From NCBI GenBank assembly GCA_022826965.1, contig JAJDTU010000013.1, forward strand, positions 434,001 to 498,000: DNA of 64,000 nt. The letters are read 5' to 3'. The notes under the pieces are model-generated. The model did no database searches and had not been told where the DNA came from. It was given only the letters and a program-made list of their open reading frames with translations. Numbering within the stretch: the stretch's first letter is position 1; each line of letters opens with the position of its first letter. This stretch comes from Dehalococcoidia bacterium. GTDB lineage: Bacteria; Chloroflexota; Dehalococcoidia; Bin125. Positions 17,524-25,505 of this stretch are shown in pieces. Both the position numbers and the translations under genes were made by a program.

Positions 17524-18531
17524 ATGGCCACACCGTTACGACAGACCATCCAGGTTGGCAAGTACGTCGTTGGACAGCAGCTTCGCCGGACGGAGCGCTA
17601 CCCGCTCGTGCTGATGCTCGAGCCGCTGCTGCAGTGCAATCTCGAATGCGCCGGTTGCGGCAAGATCCAACATCCGACGGACATCCTGCGCCGGCGTCTT
17701 TCGCCGCAGCAGTGCTGGGACGCCGTCGAAGAGTGCGGCGCTCCGGTCGTTGCCATCGCCGGTGGCGAGCCGTTGATCCACAAGGACATCGTCGAGATCG
17801 CCAAGGGATTCACCGAGCGCAAGAAATTCGTTTACCTCTGCACCAATGCGATCCTGCTCGAGCGGAAGCTGCAGGACTTCGAGCCTGATCCCTACCTGAC
17901 GTTCTCCGTCCATGTCGACGGGTACGAGCAGGACCACGACGACTCAGTTTGTCGGGACGGCATCTGGGATGTCGCGATCCGCGCGATCGAGGCGGCCAAG
18001 GAGCGCGGCTTCCGGGTGACGACGAACAGCACCTTCTTCCTGGGCGCCAAGCCCGACCGGATCCGGATGATGTTCGACAAGCTGATGGAGATTGGCGTCG
18101 ACGGGCTGATGATCTCGCCGGGTTACCCCTACGAGAAGGCTCCGGACCAGGAGCATTTCCTGGCTCGCAACCAGACCAAGGAACTGTTCCGCGACATCCT
18201 CGACGATCCGCCCAGGCACTGGAAGTTCAACCACTCCGAGCTGTTCCTTGACTTCCTCAAAGGGGAGATTGAGTACGACTGCACACCCTGGGGTAACCCG
18301 ACGTACACCGTGTTCGGCTGGCAGAAGCCCTGTTACTTGATGGATGAGGGCTACGCTGACAGCTTCAGGGAACTGATCGAAGAGACGGAATGGGAGAAGT
18401 ACGGCGTCGCCTCGGGCAACCCGAAGTGCGTCGACTGCATGGTTCACTCCGGCTACGAGGCGTCGGCGGTGATCGACGCCACGACCAACCTCAAGGCCGG
18501 CCTGCGTAGCTTCGTTGGTTCGATCCGCTAG
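17524..18531 (+). CDS. hpnH: Adenosyl-hopene transferase (radical SAM)
   Basis: HpnH joins the 5'-deoxyadenosyl group of SAM to diploptene, the first step in building the C35 hopanoid side chain. The 335-residue protein has the radical SAM triad C38/C42/C45 (CNLECAGC), the SAM-binding AGGEPL, and the family C-terminal block TPWGNPTYTVFGWQKPCYL plus cysteines in NPKCVDCMVHSGYE. A TAGAGT box ends nine bases before the ATG, so the mRNA may have an extremely short leader. hpnG-like and hpnA genes follow 1.7 kb downstream. The squalene-hopene cyclase gene is not in the window. Confidence 0.93.
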   Translation: MATPLRQTIQVGKYVVGQQLRRTERYPLVLMLEPLLQCNLECAGCGKIQHPTDILRRRLSPQQCWDAVEECGAPVVAIAGGEPLIHKDIVEIAKGFTERKKFVYLCTNAILLERKLQDFEPDPYLTFSVHVDGYEQDHDDSVCRDGIWDVAIRAIEAAKERGFRVTTNSTFFLGAKPDRIRMMFDKLMEIGVDGLMISPGYPYEKAPDQEHFLARNQTKELFRDILDDPPRHWKFNHSELFLDFLKGEIEYDCTPWGNPTYTVFGWQKPCYLMDEGYADSFRELIEETEWEKYGVASGNPKCVDCMVHSGYEASAVIDATTNLKAGLRSFVGSIR

Positions 18532-19295
18532 ACGAGCTTGAAGCGGACGCCGCAGAGCATCACGACCGACTCGTCCTCCGACACCTCAAGGTCATGATGG
18601 CGCGCCGTCGAAACGACGTGCCCTCGATCGATCGTCGCCACTTCGAGGCCGCCCAGACCTTCTCCCCGGCCGTCCGACGCCTCCACGAACCGAAGCGTCG
18701 CGTCATCCAGCGCGACGGTCGGGTGACCGTCATCATCTGAGCCGGTCGGGACTTCCAGCACTTCCGACCAGCGAGCCGCCATTGCCGATGGGTCGTCGCT
18801 CTGTAGCTCCGCCGCTGTCATCGCGGTGATCACGTGCTCACGCTTGGCCGGCAGCCAGTGGTCGCCGGCGGGATTCCAGGGACCGTCGAGCTGGTCGTCG
18901 CCGGTGTTCCAGCGCAACTCCGCGATCGCTCCGGGGACATCCTTGGGGTGGAGCTGGATCCCGTCGGTCTGATCGTTGCCAGAGTCCGTGATCAAGCGGA
19001 TGCTGAGGTTGGCAACGTGCTCGCGTCTCGCGGCAATGTCGCTGCACTGCATGATGACCATGTAGCCGCCGTCGCCTCCGCGCCGTCGCAGGTAGCGCCC
19101 GCCGGCGGTGCCGGGCATCATCGGTGAGACGACTTCGAGGAACGAGTTGCCGATCGGCATGAGGAAGTTGTGCAGGCCGAACCGGCCCACGCCGGGGTCG
19201 CGGTGACAGACCTCCAGCCCGAAGACGCCTCGCAGGTGCGCCTCGATCATGTCCAGATCTTCCGCGACGAGACAGATCTGCCGCATCCGCAACAT
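18528..19295 (-). CDS. VOC/glyoxalase-like protein
   Basis: A 255-residue protein of the vicinal-oxygen-chelate superfamily. The N-terminus (RMRQICLVAEDLDMIEAHL, RGVFGLEV) is the first beta-alpha-beta module, and the second half repeats a similar module (AELQSDDPSAMAARWSEVLE). The ATG is preceded by GAGAGAGG seven bases upstream; an upstream extension is not supported. It is convergent to hpnH, and the two stop codons share CTAG. It may be co-transcribed with the enoyl-CoA hydratase gene upstream (43 bases apart). Substrate unknown; dioxygenase or lyase activity is possible. Confidence 0.8.
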   Translation of the reverse strand: MLRMRQICLVAEDLDMIEAHLRGVFGLEVCHRDPGVGRFGLHNFLMPIGNSFLEVVSPMMPGTAGGRYLRRRGGDGGYMVIMQCSDIAARREHVANLSIRLITDSGNDQTDGIQLHPKDVPGAIAELRWNTGDDQLDGPWNPAGDHWLPAKREHVITAMTAAELQSDDPSAMAARWSEVLEVPTGSDDDGHPTVALDDATLRFVEASDGRGEGLGGLEVATIDRGHVVSTARHHDLEVSEDESVVMLCGVRFKLV

Positions 19296-19338
19296 GGCGC
19301 ACCTCTCTCCGACTGTCGGCCCTTGCGGGCCGTTCAAC

Positions 19339-20124
19339 TCACCTGCCCTTGAACACGGGACGCCGTTTCTCAACGAACGCCCGTCGTGCCTCGATCGAAT
19401 CCTCACTCTCGCCCACGCGGCGCATCCGGTCCGCCTCGCGCCGAACAGCTTCGGAGAGAGGAATCGTGAAGGCGTCGTTGAGGTTGTTCTTGATCTGTGC
19501 GATCGCGCCGGGATGCGAGTCGCGCAACTGCGCCGCGACCTGCAGGACGTTGGGCATCAGCTCTTCCGGGTCGTAGACGCCGTTGGCCAGACCGAGCGAC
19601 AGCGCCTCTTCCGGGTGCACACGGTCGGGCAGCAGGTACATCTCGCGCGCCTTGCCCATGCCCACCAGTCGCGGCAGCGTCCAGGTGCCGCCGAAGTCGC
19701 CCGAGAATCCGACCTTGAGGAAGGCGGTGTAGAGATACGCCGTGGTCGACATGTAGCGCAGATCGCAGGCGAGGGTGATCGAGCAGCCCGCGCCGGCTGC
19801 GCCGCCGTTGATCGCGGCGATGGTCGGCTTGGGCATCTGGTGCAGCAGGATCGATGTGCGCTCCGAATGAGTCAGGTTGTAGATGCTCTGCTCAAGGTTG
19901 CGGATGTCGCCGCGCCCCGTGTCCTTGAGGTCGCCGCCAGCGCAGAACAAGCGCCCGGCGCCGGTCAGGATCACGACACGGACGTCGTTGTCAGCGGCGG
20001 CCTGCTCACAGGCCAGGGGCAGCTCCGTCAGCATCGTCCCATTGAGCGCGTTGAGCGACTCGGGGCGATTCAAAGTGATGGTGCAAATGCCGTCTTCCAG
20101 GTCGTAGAGGAGCGTTTCGTACAT
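19339..20124 (-). CDS. Enoyl-CoA hydratase/isomerase family protein
   Basis: A 261-residue crotonase-fold enzyme. The acyl-CoA site is seen in FCAGGDLKD (oxyanion hole glycines) and PTIAAINGGAAGAGCSITLA, then FLKVGFSGDFGGTWTLPRLVG. The residue pair used by hydratases (Glu/Glu) is not clearly kept: the second position reads SGDFG, so isomerase or another crotonase activity is possible. The ATG at 20124 is assumed; a GTG three codons earlier is an alternative and the ribosome site is weak. It is divergent from the hpnG-like gene, with 91 bases between them. Confidence 0.85.
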   Translation of the reverse strand: MYETLLYDLEDGICTITLNRPESLNALNGTMLTELPLACEQAAADNDVRVVILTGAGRLFCAGGDLKDTGRGDIRNLEQSIYNLTHSERTSILLHQMPKPTIAAINGGAAGAGCSITLACDLRYMSTTAYLYTAFLKVGFSGDFGGTWTLPRLVGMGKAREMYLLPDRVHPEEALSLGLANGVYDPEELMPNVLQVAAQLRDSHPGAIAQIKNNLNDAFTIPLSEAVRREADRMRRVGESEDSIEARRAFVEKRRPVFKGR

Positions 20125-20203
20125 CGTCTGCACTCTCAGGGGTTCACCGGGGCACTGGCTGATTCAGACAGTCTACGACTGCGACCAAACGGCGAATGTA
20201 TGC

Positions 20204-20209
20204 AACACT
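20204..20209 (+). promoter_or_regulatory. Possible leaderless -10 box AACACT
   Basis: AACACT lies six bases before the ATG of the hpnG-like gene. It keeps the A, C and T of the TANNCT pattern but not its first T. No ribosome site is seen. Confidence 0.35.
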
Positions 20210-20215
20210 CTGTTC

Positions 20216-20923
20216 ATGCTGATCGTCGCCACAGCACTGCCCTGGGAAGCGCAAACCGCTCGTGGCGGTGCAGCCATCGCCGGCCGCGGGCGTACACGCC
20301 TGATCACGAGTGGCATCGGGCCGGAGCGGGCGCGAGATACCGCCCAACAGGTGCTGGAAACGACCGATCCGGACAAGATCACCGCGATCCTGAGCGTGGG
20401 GGTGGCCGGAGGGCTGACCAACGACATGCGGCGTCCGGCCTTAACGCTGCCGCAGCAAGTTGTGCGACAGGCGGACGAAGCCAGATGGGAACTGGACGGC
20501 CCGCTCTATCGGCGCGCATCGCGGACACTCAACGAGGCCGATTTCTACTGGCGCCCGGCAATCAGCATCACCACCCCTCGCGTCCTGTTCACGCGCCCCG
20601 AGAAGCTGGCGGCGGCAGAGTCGGGCGCACAGATTGTGCAGATGGAAGACAGCGAGTGGGCGGAGTTGTGCGCCTCGGCCAGCGTGCCCTTTATCGCCCT
20701 CCGGGTCGTACTCGACGCGCTGGACGACGACATTCCGGTGGAGTTCGGTCAGTGGCGGCGGGACGTGCCGACCGCGATGGATATTACGCTCGGCGCAATT
20801 CGGCGGCCGAAACTGCTGCGCGAGCTGGCAGGGTTAGGTCTGCAACGACGCGCGGCGTTGCAAGAGCTGGAGCGAGCGCTGACTGTGCTGATTCCCGCCC
20901 TCGCGCCTGTTCAGGTCAACTAG
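20216..20923 (+). CDS. hpnG: HpnG-like nucleoside phosphorylase/nucleosidase
   Basis: A 235-residue member of the purine nucleoside phosphorylase fold. LITSGIGPERARDTAQ and ILSVGVAGGL are the phosphate/ribose-site loops, and IVQMEDSEWAELC stands for the usual VDMES active-site segment, here with Asp following Glu. HpnG removes adenine from adenosylhopane to give ribosylhopane. I assign HpnG from fold plus position: it is 20 bases upstream of hpnA and near hpnH. A general methylthioadenosine nucleosidase is less likely because mtnP is present elsewhere. Confidence 0.75.
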   Translation: MLIVATALPWEAQTARGGAAIAGRGRTRLITSGIGPERARDTAQQVLETTDPDKITAILSVGVAGGLTNDMRRPALTLPQQVVRQADEARWELDGPLYRRASRTLNEADFYWRPAISITTPRVLFTRPEKLAAAESGAQIVQMEDSEWAELCASASVPFIALRVVLDALDDDIPVEFGQWRRDVPTAMDITLGAIRRPKLLRELAGLGLQRRAALQELERALTVLIPALAPVQVN

Positions 20924-20943
20924 ACAACGACCGCTGAGTCGCA

Positions 20944-21945
20944 GTGAAACGCGCCCTGGTCACCGGAGCCAACGGCTTCATCGGGGCTCACGTGGTGCGC
21001 GCAGCGCTCGACGCTGGCGTGGAGGTCCGGGCGATGGTTCGTCCGGACAGCGACCAGCGCAGCCTGGACGGCCTCGACGTCGAGAGGGTTTACGGAGATC
21101 TGACCGACTCGGGTTCACTGGCGGAGGCTGTTGTGGGAGTCGACACTCTATTCAACGTCGCAGCGCGCTACGACTTGAGCCGGCGGGCGCGTCGCGACGC
21201 CTATCGCGCCAACGTCGAAGGCACCCGGGAACTCATGCTGGCCGCGCTTCGGGCGCAGGTCGACCGGATCGTGCACACATCGTCGGTGGCCGCGGTCGGT
21301 CCGCCGCGCGATCCGGCGCGTCCGGCGGATGAGTCGCAATGGGCCACCGTCGAACACGCTCCGGGACCCTATGAAGAGACCAAGATTCTGAGCGAGCGAC
21401 TTGTCCACGACCTGGTCAAGACTGAGTCGTTACCCGCCGTCTGCGTGCTGCCAACCGCGCCAATCGGACCGCTCGATCTGAAACCCACCCCCACTGGTCG
21501 GCTGATACGAGATGCGGCGAGTGGGTCGATGCCGGCTTACATCCGCACAGCGGGTCTGAACATCGTGCACGTCTCGGATATTGCGGTTGGGCATGTCAAG
21601 GCGGCCATGATGGGGCACGTGGGCGAGCGCTACATTCTCGGCCACCAGCGAGGCAATCTGACGCTGCGCCAGATCATCGAACGTGCCGCGGTGTTCGGTG
21701 GCTCGCCGCAGCCCCGGGTTGCAATCCCGTCAACCGTCGCGCTCGCGGCTGCAGTCGTCGACGAATTCCTGATCAGCGCTTTGACCGGACACCAGCCACG
21801 GGCGACCATTGCCGGTGTCAGGCTGGCTCGCCAACGGCAGTACTTCGATTGCCGCAAAGCGATTGAGGTACTGCAGATGCCGCAGACCGATCTGGACGCC
21901 ACGTTCAGCGACGCAGTGGCGTGGTTTCACAGGGAGGATCGATGA
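20944..21945 (+). CDS. hpnA: Hopanoid-associated NAD-dependent epimerase
   Basis: A 333-residue extended short-chain dehydrogenase. The N-terminal motif TGANGFIGAHV binds NAD(P); the stretch VRPDSDQRSLDGLDVERVYGD is typical of HpnA. The family signature PIGPLDLKPTPTGRLI, then SGSMPAYIR and GLNIVHVSDIAVGH, is present. HpnA acts on hopanoid side chains, probably on the sugar-derived part; its exact reaction is not settled. It starts with GTG 20 bases after the hpnG-like gene and its stop overlaps the next SDR gene as ATGA, so all three are likely one operon. Confidence 0.88.
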   Translation: MKRALVTGANGFIGAHVVRAALDAGVEVRAMVRPDSDQRSLDGLDVERVYGDLTDSGSLAEAVVGVDTLFNVAARYDLSRRARRDAYRANVEGTRELMLAALRAQVDRIVHTSSVAAVGPPRDPARPADESQWATVEHAPGPYEETKILSERLVHDLVKTESLPAVCVLPTAPIGPLDLKPTPTGRLIRDAASGSMPAYIRTAGLNIVHVSDIAVGHVKAAMMGHVGERYILGHQRGNLTLRQIIERAAVFGGSPQPRVAIPSTVALAAAVVDEFLISALTGHQPRATIAGVRLARQRQYFDCRKAIEVLQMPQTDLDATFSDAVAWFHREDR

Positions 21946-22808
21946 GTACTCAATCAACCCCGCCCGTGGTACTGATCACCGGAGCCAACAGCGGCATCGG
22001 CCAAGCCGCCGCCACCGAGCTGGCGCGGCGCGGCTGGCACGTGTTCGCCGCCGCCCGTTCGGTCGAGCGAGGACAGGCCGCCGTCTCCCAGATCCAGAAG
22101 GACAGTGGCTCGATCGCCGTTGAACTGCTGGAACTGGATCTTGCCGCGTTTGCCTCCGTCCGACGCGCAGCCGATGAACTGTTGGGGCGTACTGAGCGGC
22201 TCGACGTGCTGGTCAACAACGCTGGTCTGACCCTCAACGAGCGACGGGTCACCAGCGACGGCCTCGAGACGATGATGCAGACGAATCACTTCTCGCACGT
22301 CCTGCTCACCTCGCTGCTGCTGCCGACGCTGCTCGAGTCGGACGATGCACGCGTCGTCAACGTCAGCTCGCGCGTCTACGAGCGCGTTGAGGCGATGCCG
22401 CTGGACGACCTCAACTTCGAGCACTATTGGGGCGGAATCCGGCCCTACTGCGCGACCAAGCTGGCCAACATCCTGTTCACCAACGAACTGCATCGACGCA
22501 GGCACGACCGTGGACTGGCCGCCTTCTCCGTCCATCCCGGCGTCGTGGCGACCAGTTTCATGCGGAACTTCCCTGCTCCCATGCGCGCGGCGCTCCGCGT
22601 CGCGCGACCACTGCTTCGAAGTCCTGAGCAGGGGGCGGCGCCGGTCGTCGAGCTCGTCACCGACCGGGCGAGACGCGCAGACGCCGGCGAGTACTTCGAC
22701 CGCCACACCCGCACGCAGCAGCAACCGCAAGCCAGCGACCGCCAGGCCGCCGAGCGCCTCTGGGACGCAAGCAACGAAATCACCGGCGCCGACTGGAGCC
22801 TGTCCTAA
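21942..22808 (+). CDS. Short-chain dehydrogenase, retinol-dehydrogenase-like, copy 1
   Basis: A 288-residue classical SDR. Cofactor motif TGANSGIG at 13-20, NNAG at 92-95, catalytic Ser about 142, and Y169/K173 in YCATK. The ATG overlaps the hpnA stop as ATGA and has GGGAGG just upstream, so translation is coupled to hpnA. It is about the same length as, and aligns without gaps through the catalytic lysine with, the next gene (22893-23765). The substrate may be a lipid alcohol or ketone; its link to hopanoid synthesis is inferred only from position. Confidence 0.88.
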   Translation: MSTQSTPPVVLITGANSGIGQAAATELARRGWHVFAAARSVERGQAAVSQIQKDSGSIAVELLELDLAAFASVRRAADELLGRTERLDVLVNNAGLTLNERRVTSDGLETMMQTNHFSHVLLTSLLLPTLLESDDARVVNVSSRVYERVEAMPLDDLNFEHYWGGIRPYCATKLANILFTNELHRRRHDRGLAAFSVHPGVVATSFMRNFPAPMRAALRVARPLLRSPEQGAAPVVELVTDRARRADAGEYFDRHTRTQQQPQASDRQAAERLWDASNEITGADWSLS

Positions 22809-22880
22809 CTCCCGGCCTTGAGCGTGAGCCGCAACGACCCGAGTGTGGCGCCTGGCAGCGGGCGCCCTCAAAGGGTTTCT

Positions 22881-22886
22881 TACACT
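22881..22886 (+). promoter_or_regulatory. Leaderless -10 box TACACT
   Basis: TACACT followed by six bases (tgacgg) and the ATG of the second SDR gene. No convincing -35 box or ribosome site. It lies in the 84-base gap between the two SDR paralogs and would let the second copy be expressed independently. Confidence 0.6.
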
Positions 22887-22892
22887 TGACGG

Positions 22893-23765
22893 ATGAACAA
22901 CCCAGCCAAACCGCCTGTCGCATTGATCACTGGAGCCAACAGCGGGATTGGCCAGGCCGCCGCGACCGAACTGGCACGCCGCGGGTGGCATGTCTTCGCC
23001 ACTGCTCGTTCACCCGAGCGAGGGCAGGCAGCCGTCTCGCAGATCCAGAAGGACAGCGGTTCGAGCGCCGTCGAACTGCTCGACCTCGACCTCGCCTCAT
23101 TCACGTCGGTGCGACGGGCGGCGGCTGAACTGCTCGAGCGGACCGAGCATCTCGACGTCCTCGTCAACAATGCCGGCGTCAACCTGAATAGCCGCAGCCT
23201 GACGGAGGACGGGCTTGAGACGACGATGCAGGTCAACCATTTCGGCCACTTCCTGCTCGCGTCCTTGTTGTTCTCGCGGCTGATGGAATCGGAAGACGCG
23301 CGAATCGTCAACGTCTCCTCCACGCTCTACAAGCGTGCCGGCGCGATGCCGCTCGACGATCTCCAGCTCGAACGCAACGGGGGTGGTTTCAAGCCGTACT
23401 CGATCTCCAAGCTGGCCAATGTCCTCTTCACGCGCGGGCTGCATCGGCGATATCACGCGGCGGGACTCGCATCGTTCGCGGTACACCCGGGTGGGGTCCG
23501 CACTCAACTTGGGGCCGATGGAGACTTGCGGGGGCCGATGCGAGTGGGCTGGCGCATGGTCCAACCGTTTCTGCTCAGCGCCGAGAAGGGCGCGGCGCCG
23601 GTTGTCGATGTGGTGAGCGACGCAGACAAGCGAAATGATGCCGGCGCCTACTTCCACCGGCACAAGATTCAGCAGCTGAACCAACACGGCGCGGACGCTT
23701 CGGCCGCAGACGCGCTCTGGCAGGCCTCTATCGAACTCACGCAAGCGGAATGGCCCGAGGCATGA
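22893..23765 (+). CDS. Short-chain dehydrogenase, copy 2
   Basis: A 290-residue SDR paralogous to the preceding gene; the first 55 residues are nearly identical in sequence. Motifs: TGANSGIG at 13-20, NNAG at 92-95, Ser about 142, Y169/K173 in YSISK. The two differ mainly in the substrate-loop region (residues 150-165 and the C-terminal third), so substrate preference has probably diverged. It has its own leaderless promoter, unlike copy 1. Its stop overlaps the DinB-like gene as ATGA. Confidence 0.88.
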   Translation: MNNPAKPPVALITGANSGIGQAAATELARRGWHVFATARSPERGQAAVSQIQKDSGSSAVELLDLDLASFTSVRRAAAELLERTEHLDVLVNNAGVNLNSRSLTEDGLETTMQVNHFGHFLLASLLFSRLMESEDARIVNVSSTLYKRAGAMPLDDLQLERNGGGFKPYSISKLANVLFTRGLHRRYHAAGLASFAVHPGGVRTQLGADGDLRGPMRVGWRMVQPFLLSAEKGAAPVVDVVSDADKRNDAGAYFHRHKIQQLNQHGADASAADALWQASIELTQAEWPEA

Positions 23766-24323: not shown

Positions 24324-25505
24324 CTACTGCCTCGGAAGCTGCAGGCCTCGGGTGGCGATGATGTTGCGCTGAATCTCGGACGTGCCGGCCGCGATCGTGC
24401 TGGGGACGGACGACATGTAGGAGCGGCCGATTCGGGCGGCGAGCGGGGCGTCGGGATCGTCGGGGTCGATCCGCTGACTGTGCAGGCCCATCATGTTGAC
24501 GCCGAAGCGAGAGACGCGCTGGCCCAGCTCGGAGCCGAACATCTTCGACATTGACGCCTCGTGATTCGGGACGAGTTCTTGCGACTGCATCCAGACAACC
24601 CGGTAAGAGATCAGTTTGGCAATCTCCGACTCGATCATCAGGTTGGCGAGTCCGTTGCGGACGCCCGGATCGTCGATCAGCTTGGCGCCGCCGCGCCGGC
24701 CCGGCTTCTCGGCCGCGTACTCGGACATCAGCTCGACGCTCTTGCGGGAGGTCGCCGACCATGCGACGCCGGAGCGCTCGAAGTCGAGCAACGTGGCGGC
24801 AACGTACCAGCCGCGGTTGTACTCGCCCATCATGTTCGCCGCCGGCACGCGCACATCGGTGAAGTAGACCTCGTTGAAGCCGTGTTCGCCGAGCATGTTG
24901 ATCAATGGCCGCACCTCGATGCCCGGCGTGTTCATGTCGAGCAGGAAGTAGGAGATACCCCGGTGCTTGGGCGCTTCGGGGTCGGTGCGGGTAAGCACGT
25001 GGATCCAGTCGGCGTAGTGTGCGCCCGATGTCCAGATCTTCTGCCCGTTGATCACGAAGTCGTCGCCGTCGCGGACGGCGCGGGTCTGCAGGCCAGCGAG
25101 GTCGGAGCCGTTGCCGGGCTCGGAGAAGCCCTGGGCCCAGTAGGACTCGGCGTTTGCGATCCGCGGCAGGTGCTCCTGACGCTGCTCCTCGGTGCCGTGC
25201 AACATCAGACAGGGGCCGACCATCGAAATGCCCTGACCGCCCGAACCGGGCGCGCCGCGATAGGCGGCTTCTTCGCGATAGATCATCTGCTGGATGTGGC
25301 TGGCTCCACGGCCGCCGTACTCCTCCGGCCAGGCCATGGTCAGCCAGCCCTTGGATGCCGCCCGCTTCTCGAATGCGCGCTCGGCTATGAAATGAGAGTC
25401 ATCGCCCTCGACTTCCGGGCCGGAGGCCGGCACCCAGTTGTTGTCGATGAAGTCCACCACCTCGCTGCGAAACGCATTGTCGGCTTCCGTGAATTGATAG
25501 TCCAT
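24324..25505 (-). CDS. Acyl-CoA dehydrogenase
   Basis: A 393-residue flavoprotein that oxidises an acyl-CoA thioester at the alpha-beta bond and passes electrons to electron-transfer flavoprotein. The FAD/substrate segments are YWAQGFSEPGNGSDLAGLQT, FVINGQKIWTSGAHYADW and the C-terminal TIAAGTSEIQRNIIATRGL, which is the usual nucleotide-contact end. The ATG has GAGGAG six bases upstream. It is divergent from the flavoprotein gene at 25595, with 89 bases between them. Chain-length preference cannot be told. Confidence 0.9.
   Translation of the reverse strand: MDYQFTEADNAFRSEVVDFIDNNWVPASGPEVEGDDSHFIAERAFEKRAASKGWLTMAWPEEYGGRGASHIQQMIYREEAAYRGAPGSGGQGISMVGPCLMLHGTEEQRQEHLPRIANAESYWAQGFSEPGNGSDLAGLQTRAVRDGDDFVINGQKIWTSGAHYADWIHVLTRTDPEAPKHRGISYFLLDMNTPGIEVRPLINMLGEHGFNEVYFTDVRVPAANMMGEYNRGWYVAATLLDFERSGVAWSATSRKSVELMSEYAAEKPGRRGGAKLIDDPGVRNGLANLMIESEIAKLISYRVVWMQSQELVPNHEASMSKMFGSELGQRVSRFGVNMMGLHSQRIDPDDPDAPLAARIGRSYMSSVPSTIAAGTSEIQRNIIATRGLQLPRQ

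What the first reader, a model, noticed from the sequence alone, without database searches (positions are those of the whole stretch)
17524..23765. Hopanoid side-chain genes without a cyclase, mixed with lipid-type enzymes
hpnH, an hpnG-like gene and hpnA lie within 4.5 kb, giving the adenosyl- and ribosyl-hopane steps plus HpnA. The squalene-hopene cyclase, hpnF and squalene synthesis genes are absent. Between and after them are a VOC protein, an enoyl-CoA-hydratase-like protein and two SDRs, the first SDR translationally coupled to hpnA. These four may act on hopanoid side chains or related lipids. A geranylgeranyl-reductase-like gene follows 2 kb later.
Basis: partly seen in the sequence, partly recalled or inferred. 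Interest (0 to 1): 0.5.

Follow-up and report, generated by a model that had tools for sequence, protein, structure and literature searches.

The report
Split hopanoid pathway, cyclase just outside
These are the side-chain genes of an ordinary bacterial hopanoid (sterol-like lipid) pathway; the supposedly missing cyclase sits just outside the stretch that was read, and the extra genes beside them are recent local additions of unproven role.

Summary
The genes are as described: hpnH, VOC, crotonase, hpnG-like, hpnA, two SDRs and a GGR-like gene, with an ATGA overlap between hpnA and the first SDR. The headline is a window-edge effect. Squalene-hopene cyclase, hpnC, hpnD, hpnE and a prenyl synthase lie 3-10 kb before the window, so the C35 hopanoid pathway is genetically complete. 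In other families of the class the two halves usually lie together; here about 20 kb of other genes separates them. The hpnA-SDR overlap holds in 13 of 15 genomes of the genus and in one sister genus. VOC, crotonase and SDR are absent from the hpn loci of three other family members. SDRs are not enriched beside hpn genes elsewhere in the phylum, and the SDR is tied more tightly to a DinB-type gene than to hpnA. Hopanoid roles for VOC and crotonase are unsupported; the SDR is a weak candidate for the unidentified enzyme making bacteriohopanetetrol. In passing: the genome also carries a sterol cluster of the kind already reported from sponge symbionts, with squalene epoxidase fused to oxidosqualene cyclase. 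hpnC and hpnD are its only squalene-synthase-family genes, so one squalene supply should feed both pathways.

The parts
17524..18531 (+). hpnH, adenosylhopane synthase (radical SAM)
   Evidence: TIGR03470 519 bits, cut-off 225; CxxxCxxC present in the sequence; 93-97% identical in the 11 genus loci counted
18528..19295 (-). VOC / Glyoxalase_3 protein, genus-level addition; not shown to belong to the pathway. Start set by homology (MLRMRQ), the open frame runs to 19406
   Evidence: PF13468 28.9 bits; lacks the histidines aligned in methylmalonyl-CoA epimerase; at the locus only in the genus and G017
19339..20133 (-). crotonase (enoyl-CoA hydratase/isomerase superfamily), genus-level addition; not shown to belong to the pathway
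   Evidence: PF00378 205 bits; 90-98% identical in the other 14 genus genomes, 73% in G017, others at most 52%
20216..20923 (+). hpnG-like nucleosidase/phosphorylase
   Evidence: TIGR03468 89.9 bits, below cut-off 187; catalytic Glu and Asp of MTA/SAH nucleosidases conserved
20944..21945 (+). hpnA, NAD-dependent epimerase/dehydratase-type SDR of unknown step
   Evidence: TIGR03466 360.4 bits, just under cut-off 367.65
21942..22808 (+). SDR1, overlaps hpnA by ATGA
   Evidence: PF00106 125 bits; overlap read; orthologue in 15 of 15 genus genomes
22893..23765 (+). SDR2, 64% identical tandem copy of SDR1
   Evidence: PF00106 129 bits; identity
23762..24259 (+). DinB-superfamily gene overlapping SDR2 by ATGA (alternative start 23750)
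   Evidence: PF12867 42.8 bits; overlap
24324..25505 (-). acyl-CoA dehydrogenase, neighbour; start set by homology, the open frame runs to 25592
   Evidence: PF00441, PF02770, PF02771
25595..26761 (+). geranylgeranyl-reductase-superfamily gene, neighbour
   Evidence: TIGR02032 207 bits, cut-off 158.8; in all 20 family genomes searched

Best explanation
The locus is the distal, side-chain half of a complete C35 hopanoid pathway in a Chloroflexota (Dehalococcoidia) bacterium. Squalene made by HpnC, HpnD and HpnE is cyclised by Shc; both sets of genes lie just upstream of the window. HpnH adds a 5'-deoxyadenosyl group to hopene; the HpnG-like enzyme removes adenine to give ribosylhopane; HpnA acts at a step not yet known. 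The two halves are usually adjacent in the class and are separated here by about 20 kb of other genes, a state shared by the genus and by at least one other genus of the family. A VOC-crotonase pair and SDR(s)-DinB genes were added beside the hpn genes in the lineage of this genus and one sister genus. The SDR and DinB genes are coupled behind hpnA but are not part of the conserved hopanoid machinery. Shown: genes, order, overlaps, conservation. Inferred from family knowledge: enzyme activities and the lipid product.
For: Shc 774 bits, HpnC 296, HpnE 389 over cut-off, HpnD 240 just under, together upstream of the window. HpnH over cut-off in 32 of 61 genomes, all 15 of the genus. Shc lies in the same fetched stretch as hpnH in 10 of 13 loci of other class families and 15 of 20 phylum loci, and in 0 of 18 of this family. 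The same genes fill the 20-kb gap in G003, G010, G011, G013 and, in large part, G019. VOC, crotonase and SDR absent from G016, G018 and G019 loci.
Against: HpnG-like, HpnA and HpnD score below their curated cut-offs. No lipid data exist for this organism. Several comparison loci are cut by contig ends, and one search's greedy gene picking missed some genes, so absences there are soft. The genome is an assembly of 14 contigs, 97% complete, 1.7% contaminated.
Confidence: 0.85

Rival explanations
1. SDR1, coupled to hpnA, is this lineage's ribosylhopane reductase: it reduces the open-chain aldehyde form of ribosylhopane to bacteriohopanetetrol, a step with no assigned enzyme.
For: Overlap with hpnA in 13 of 15 genus genomes and G017; SDR1 orthologues more conserved (median 86%) than hpnA (78%) or hpnG (59%); intact SDR motifs visible in the sequence; [quoted passage not shown]
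Against: Absent beside hpnA in three other family members and not enriched near hpn genes in the phylum; in G006 the SDR stays with DinB, away from hpnA; about 58 SDR matches in the genome, so a neighbour SDR is cheap; nearest solved relatives are uncharacterised or protochlorophyllide reductases.
Confidence: 0.08
2. VOC, crotonase, acyl-CoA dehydrogenase and perhaps the SDRs and DinB form a separate acyl-CoA or ring-compound breakdown module that merely settled among the hpn genes.
For: VOC and crotonase face the other way; crotonase and acyl-CoA dehydrogenase are the most conserved neighbours apart from hpnH (medians 95% and 94%); crotonase resembles PaaG-type enzymes; SDR and DinB stay together in G006 without hpnA.
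Against: The block has stayed next to hpnH-hpnG-hpnA in nearly all genus genomes and G017; no substrate can be named.
Confidence: 0.45
3. The locus serves the sterol pathway found elsewhere in the genome rather than hopanoids, for example HpnA as a sterol demethylase SDR and the GGR as a C-24 sterol reductase (Bsr).
For: A sterol cluster exists in the genome; HpnA is related to SdmB (209.9 bits); Bsr is a GGR-family protein (PMC12004948, passages).
Against: The locus is present in G001, G006, G012 and G017, in which no fused epoxidase-cyclase was found; HpnA scores 360 bits as HpnA and 210 as SdmB, and the sterol cluster has its own SdmB-like gene.
Confidence: 0.05

Closest known systems
Bacterial hpn (hopanoid) gene clusters, as described for Alphaproteobacteria in PMC12583986 (passages and section 26 read)
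   Same: Same core: hpnC, hpnD, hpnE, shc, hpnH, hpnG, with hpnA; that paper also shows fractured clusters
   Different: Split by about 20 kb in this genus; VOC-crotonase pair between hpnH and hpnG; SDR(s) and DinB coupled behind hpnA; no HpnR found
PRK06197-type classical SDRs (for SDR1 and SDR2)
   Same: Best NCBIfam match for both (224 and 200 bits)
   Different: Below the curated cut-off of 268; substrate unknown; coupled to hpnA
Clusters of steroid genes of sponge symbionts (Kelly et al. 2022, PMC9531527, passages read)
   Same: The cluster on contig C10 has the same core (ERG24, P450, cyclase) with a sterol methyltransferase on the other strand; Dehalococcoidia are among the reported hosts
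   Different: A separate locus from this finding; here the flanking genes match SdmB and SdmA, which that paper did not annotate, and the cyclase is fused to a squalene epoxidase

Membership tests
C35 hopanoid pathway | Squalene-hopene cyclase in the genome | tested here: met
   TIGR01507 774 bits, cut-off 431
C35 hopanoid pathway | Squalene supply (HpnC, HpnD, HpnE) | tested here: met
   HpnC and HpnE over cut-off; HpnD 240 against 279, best of its models, adjacent
C35 hopanoid pathway | HpnH | tested here: met
   519 bits, cut-off 225
C35 hopanoid pathway | HpnG | tested here: inconclusive
   89.9 bits against cut-off 187; position and catalytic Glu/Asp fit
C35 hopanoid pathway | Bacteriohopanepolyols made | not testable with these tools
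   Needs lipid analysis
HpnA (TIGR03466) | Score over the curated cut-off | tested here: inconclusive
   360.4 against 367.65, far above the next model SdmB at 209.9
Methylmalonyl-CoA epimerase (for the VOC gene) | Score over cut-off; histidines of the known enzyme kept | tested here: not met
   40.3 bits against 114.95; Q and M/V stand at the aligned histidines; that these histidines bind the metal is recalled
Bsr, C-24 sterol reductase (for the GGR gene) | Confined to sterol-pathway genomes (PMC12004948, passages) | tested here: not met
   Present in family genomes where no fused epoxidase-cyclase was found; no direct comparison with Bsr was made
Ribosylhopane reductase (for SDR1) | Activity on ribosylhopane | not testable with these tools
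   No known enzyme to compare with

The most novel reading that the evidence does not exclude
The hpnA-coupled SDR is the unassigned reductase that turns ribosylhopane into bacteriohopanetetrol, recruited in this genus and one sister genus and held in place by translational coupling to hpnA.
Probability: 0.08. Interest if true: 0.7.

Novelty: new member of a known kind. Interest (0 to 1): 0.3.

Why it matters
It removes a false puzzle (side-chain genes without a cyclase) and shows complete hopanoid genes in a clade of Chloroflexota whose named relatives come largely from sponge microbiome assemblies (titles; that these sample codes mean sponges is partly recalled, partly). In 12 of 15 genomes of the genus the fused sterol enzyme is present too. 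In the window's genome hpnC and hpnD are the only squalene-synthase-family genes, so one squalene supply should feed both triterpenoid routes, which bears on who makes which biomarker lipid in sponges. It also gives one small testable candidate for an unassigned hopanoid step.

Tried and rejected
Rejected: no cyclase in the genome. Rejected: the GGR as a dedicated sterol C-24 reductase. Rejected: SDR adjacency as a phylum-wide hopanoid trait. Rejected: the VOC as an ordinary methylmalonyl-CoA epimerase. HpnR was searched in the own genome, nothing at E <= 0.001; HpnB, HpnI, HpnJ, HpnK, HpnL, HpnM, HpnN, HpnO and HpnP were not searched. The sterol cluster first looked new; Kelly et al. 2022 (passages read) had already reported such clusters in ten phyla, Dehalococcoidia included, and Brown et al. 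2023 (sections 7 and 9 and passages read) mention fused SMO/OSC proteins. Literature searches were made, in open-licence PMC papers only; I saw no listed paper on an hpnA-coupled SDR, and of most hits I saw only the listing.
Full report
What is there. Searches confirm the genes. On the - strand, between hpnH and hpnG, are a VOC/Glyoxalase_3 gene and a crotonase. An acyl-CoA dehydrogenase (-) and a geranylgeranyl-reductase-like gene (+) follow. The hpnA stop and the SDR1 start share ATGA; the SDR2 stop and a DinB start share ATGA.

The cyclase is not missing. The window is C2:434001-498000 of a 3.0-Mb, 14-contig assembly, 97% complete. On the same contig, before the window, lie a polyprenyl synthase, squalene-hopene cyclase (774 bits, cut-off 431), hpnC (296, cut-off 250), hpnD (240, just under 279) and hpnE (389, cut-off 283). 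hpnE ends 2.8 kb before the window; hpnE and hpnH are 20.3 kb apart. No other squalene synthase was found: the only PF00494 matches in the genome are hpnC and hpnD.

Why it looked incomplete. One search covered 61 genomes (own plus 60 relatives) for HpnH: 32 have a match over the cut-off, among them all 15 of the genus. I fetched hpnH neighbourhoods (up to 20 kb) for 18 genomes of the family and 13 of other families of the class, and for 20 of the 60 HpnH-bearing genomes among 400 of the phylum (two of these 20 are of the same class). Shc lies in the same stretch in 10 of the 13 and 15 of the 20, and in none of the 18 of this family (contig ends cut several short). In three class loci (L026, L029, L030) hpnH directly follows shc-hpnC-hpnD-hpnE; in others (for example L031, L034, L035) the order is prenyl synthase, hpnH, hpnG, hpnA, shc. 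The genes filling the 20 kb in G000 recur in G003, G010, G011 and G013 and, in large part, in G019 of another genus, so the split is older than this genus. In G017 shc and hpnH lie about 250 kb apart on one contig.

The additions. VOC and crotonase sit between hpnH and hpnG in 12 of the 14 other genus loci; the contigs of the other two (G002, G004) end before that point, and their crotonase lies on another contig beside the SDR. The pair is also in G017. It is absent from the loci of G016, G018 and G019; G015's locus could not be read. Crotonase orthologues of 90-98% identity occur in the 14 other genus genomes and at 73% in G017; everything else over the threshold is at most 52%. SDR1 behaves alike: 15 of 15 in the genus, and G017; beyond these four weaker hits (38-44%) in three of the 61 genomes. 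The junction: 12 of 15 genus genomes have ATGA, G001 has TGATG, G008 has a 21-nt gap, and in G006 hpnA and the SDR lie on different contigs; in G017 the SDR starts 16 nt before the hpnA stop codon. In G006 hpnA is followed by a flavin-monooxygenase-like gene on the other strand. The last SDR overlaps DinB in all 15 junctions read (14 genus genomes and G017; G002 was left out because its contig ends). DinB, not hpnA, is thus the SDR's steadier partner, which counts against a hopanoid-only role.

Is SDR adjacency more than chance? This genome has 58 PF00106 matches in 3.0 Mb. The 36 hpn loci outside the genus and G017 (587 kb) gave four SDR hits at 27-33% identity, with looser profiles, marked two more. 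That is no enrichment, with the caveat that SDR density in those genomes was not measured. The coupling in this genus is best read as one event kept by descent.

Mechanism. HpnH, HpnG and Shc functions follow from the named families. PMC12583986 (passages; section 26) gives the HpnH and HpnG steps, says that the function of hpnA is not established, and that the enzyme making bacteriohopanetetrol from ribosylhopane 'has not yet been established'. The HpnG-like protein is below its family cut-off but keeps the Glu and Asp aligned with MTA/SAH nucleosidases in 16 of 16 sequences (their catalytic role is recalled). SDR1's nearest solved relatives are an SDR entry without a stated function and protochlorophyllide reductases, so its substrate cannot be told. 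The crotonase resembles enoyl-CoA hydratases and PaaG; the VOC lacks the epimerase histidines. I rate a hopanoid role as unlikely for VOC and crotonase, and as possible but unproven for the SDR.

Side finding. The second cyclase hit (contig C10) is a squalene epoxidase fused to an oxidosqualene cyclase (TIGR03463 753 bits, below its cut-off of 851; PF08491 84 bits). It is preceded by SdmB-like and SdmA-like genes (293 and 398 bits, both below cut-offs of 600), an ERG4/ERG24 reductase and a P450, and followed by a sterol methyltransferase on the other strand. Fused copies (74-91% identical) occur in 11 of the 14 other genus genomes, those of G002 and G007 partial, and in none of the five other family genomes. 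A scan of GTDB species genomes found 171 relatives and kept 80 loci; all 80 matches span the boundary between the two domains, on contigs titled as Chloroflexota, Nitrospira, Binatota, Acidimicrobiia, Gemmatimonadetes, Alpha- and Gammaproteobacteria and others. 57 of the 80 loci hold all five core genes and 79 of 80 show a DCTAE motif. Kelly et al. 2022 had already reported such clusters in 115 of 537 Ircinia MAGs across ten phyla, with horizontal transfer, so this is not new; a term search of that paper's main text found no 'hopanoid' and no 'fused'. Of 50 other carriers searched (50 of the 80 loci given), 49 have squalene-synthase-family genes.

Verdict. An ordinary hopanoid locus, split, seen through a window edge, with lineage-specific neighbours. 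Interest is modest.

Noticed in passing
L005:3623-12811 (contig C10 of the same genome, outside the window): Sterol gene cluster with squalene epoxidase fused to oxidosqualene cyclase; same kind as the clusters reported by Kelly et al. 2022, with SdmA- and SdmB-like genes that paper did not annotate. It shares the genome with a full hopanoid pathway and only one squalene-synthase pair.
   Followed up: yes
window 20216-20923: hpnG comes in two forms in the genus: those of G000 and G003 are 83% identical to each other but only 56-61% to the other 13, although hpnA of G000 and G003 are not each other's closest. This looks like a gene replacement confined to hpnG.
   Followed up: partly
L016:9134-10546: An MgtE-like transporter gene (named from the sequence alone) sits between hpnH and VOC; the same extra spacing of about 1.5 kb is seen in seven genus loci and is absent from the window.
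   Followed up: no
L012:12712-14328: In G006 a flavin-monooxygenase-like gene on the other strand follows hpnA, where other genus genomes have the SDR.
   Followed up: partly
L004:8791-9867: The prenyl synthase next to shc matches best the NCBIfam model for family 2 encapsulin cargo polyprenyl transferases (302 bits, below cut-off 450). No encapsulin was looked for.
   Followed up: no
L059: A contig titled Gemmatimonadetes carries a fused epoxidase-cyclase 74% identical to this one, as close as the Dehalococcoidia copy L055 from the same sample series: recent transfer or a binning error.
   Followed up: no
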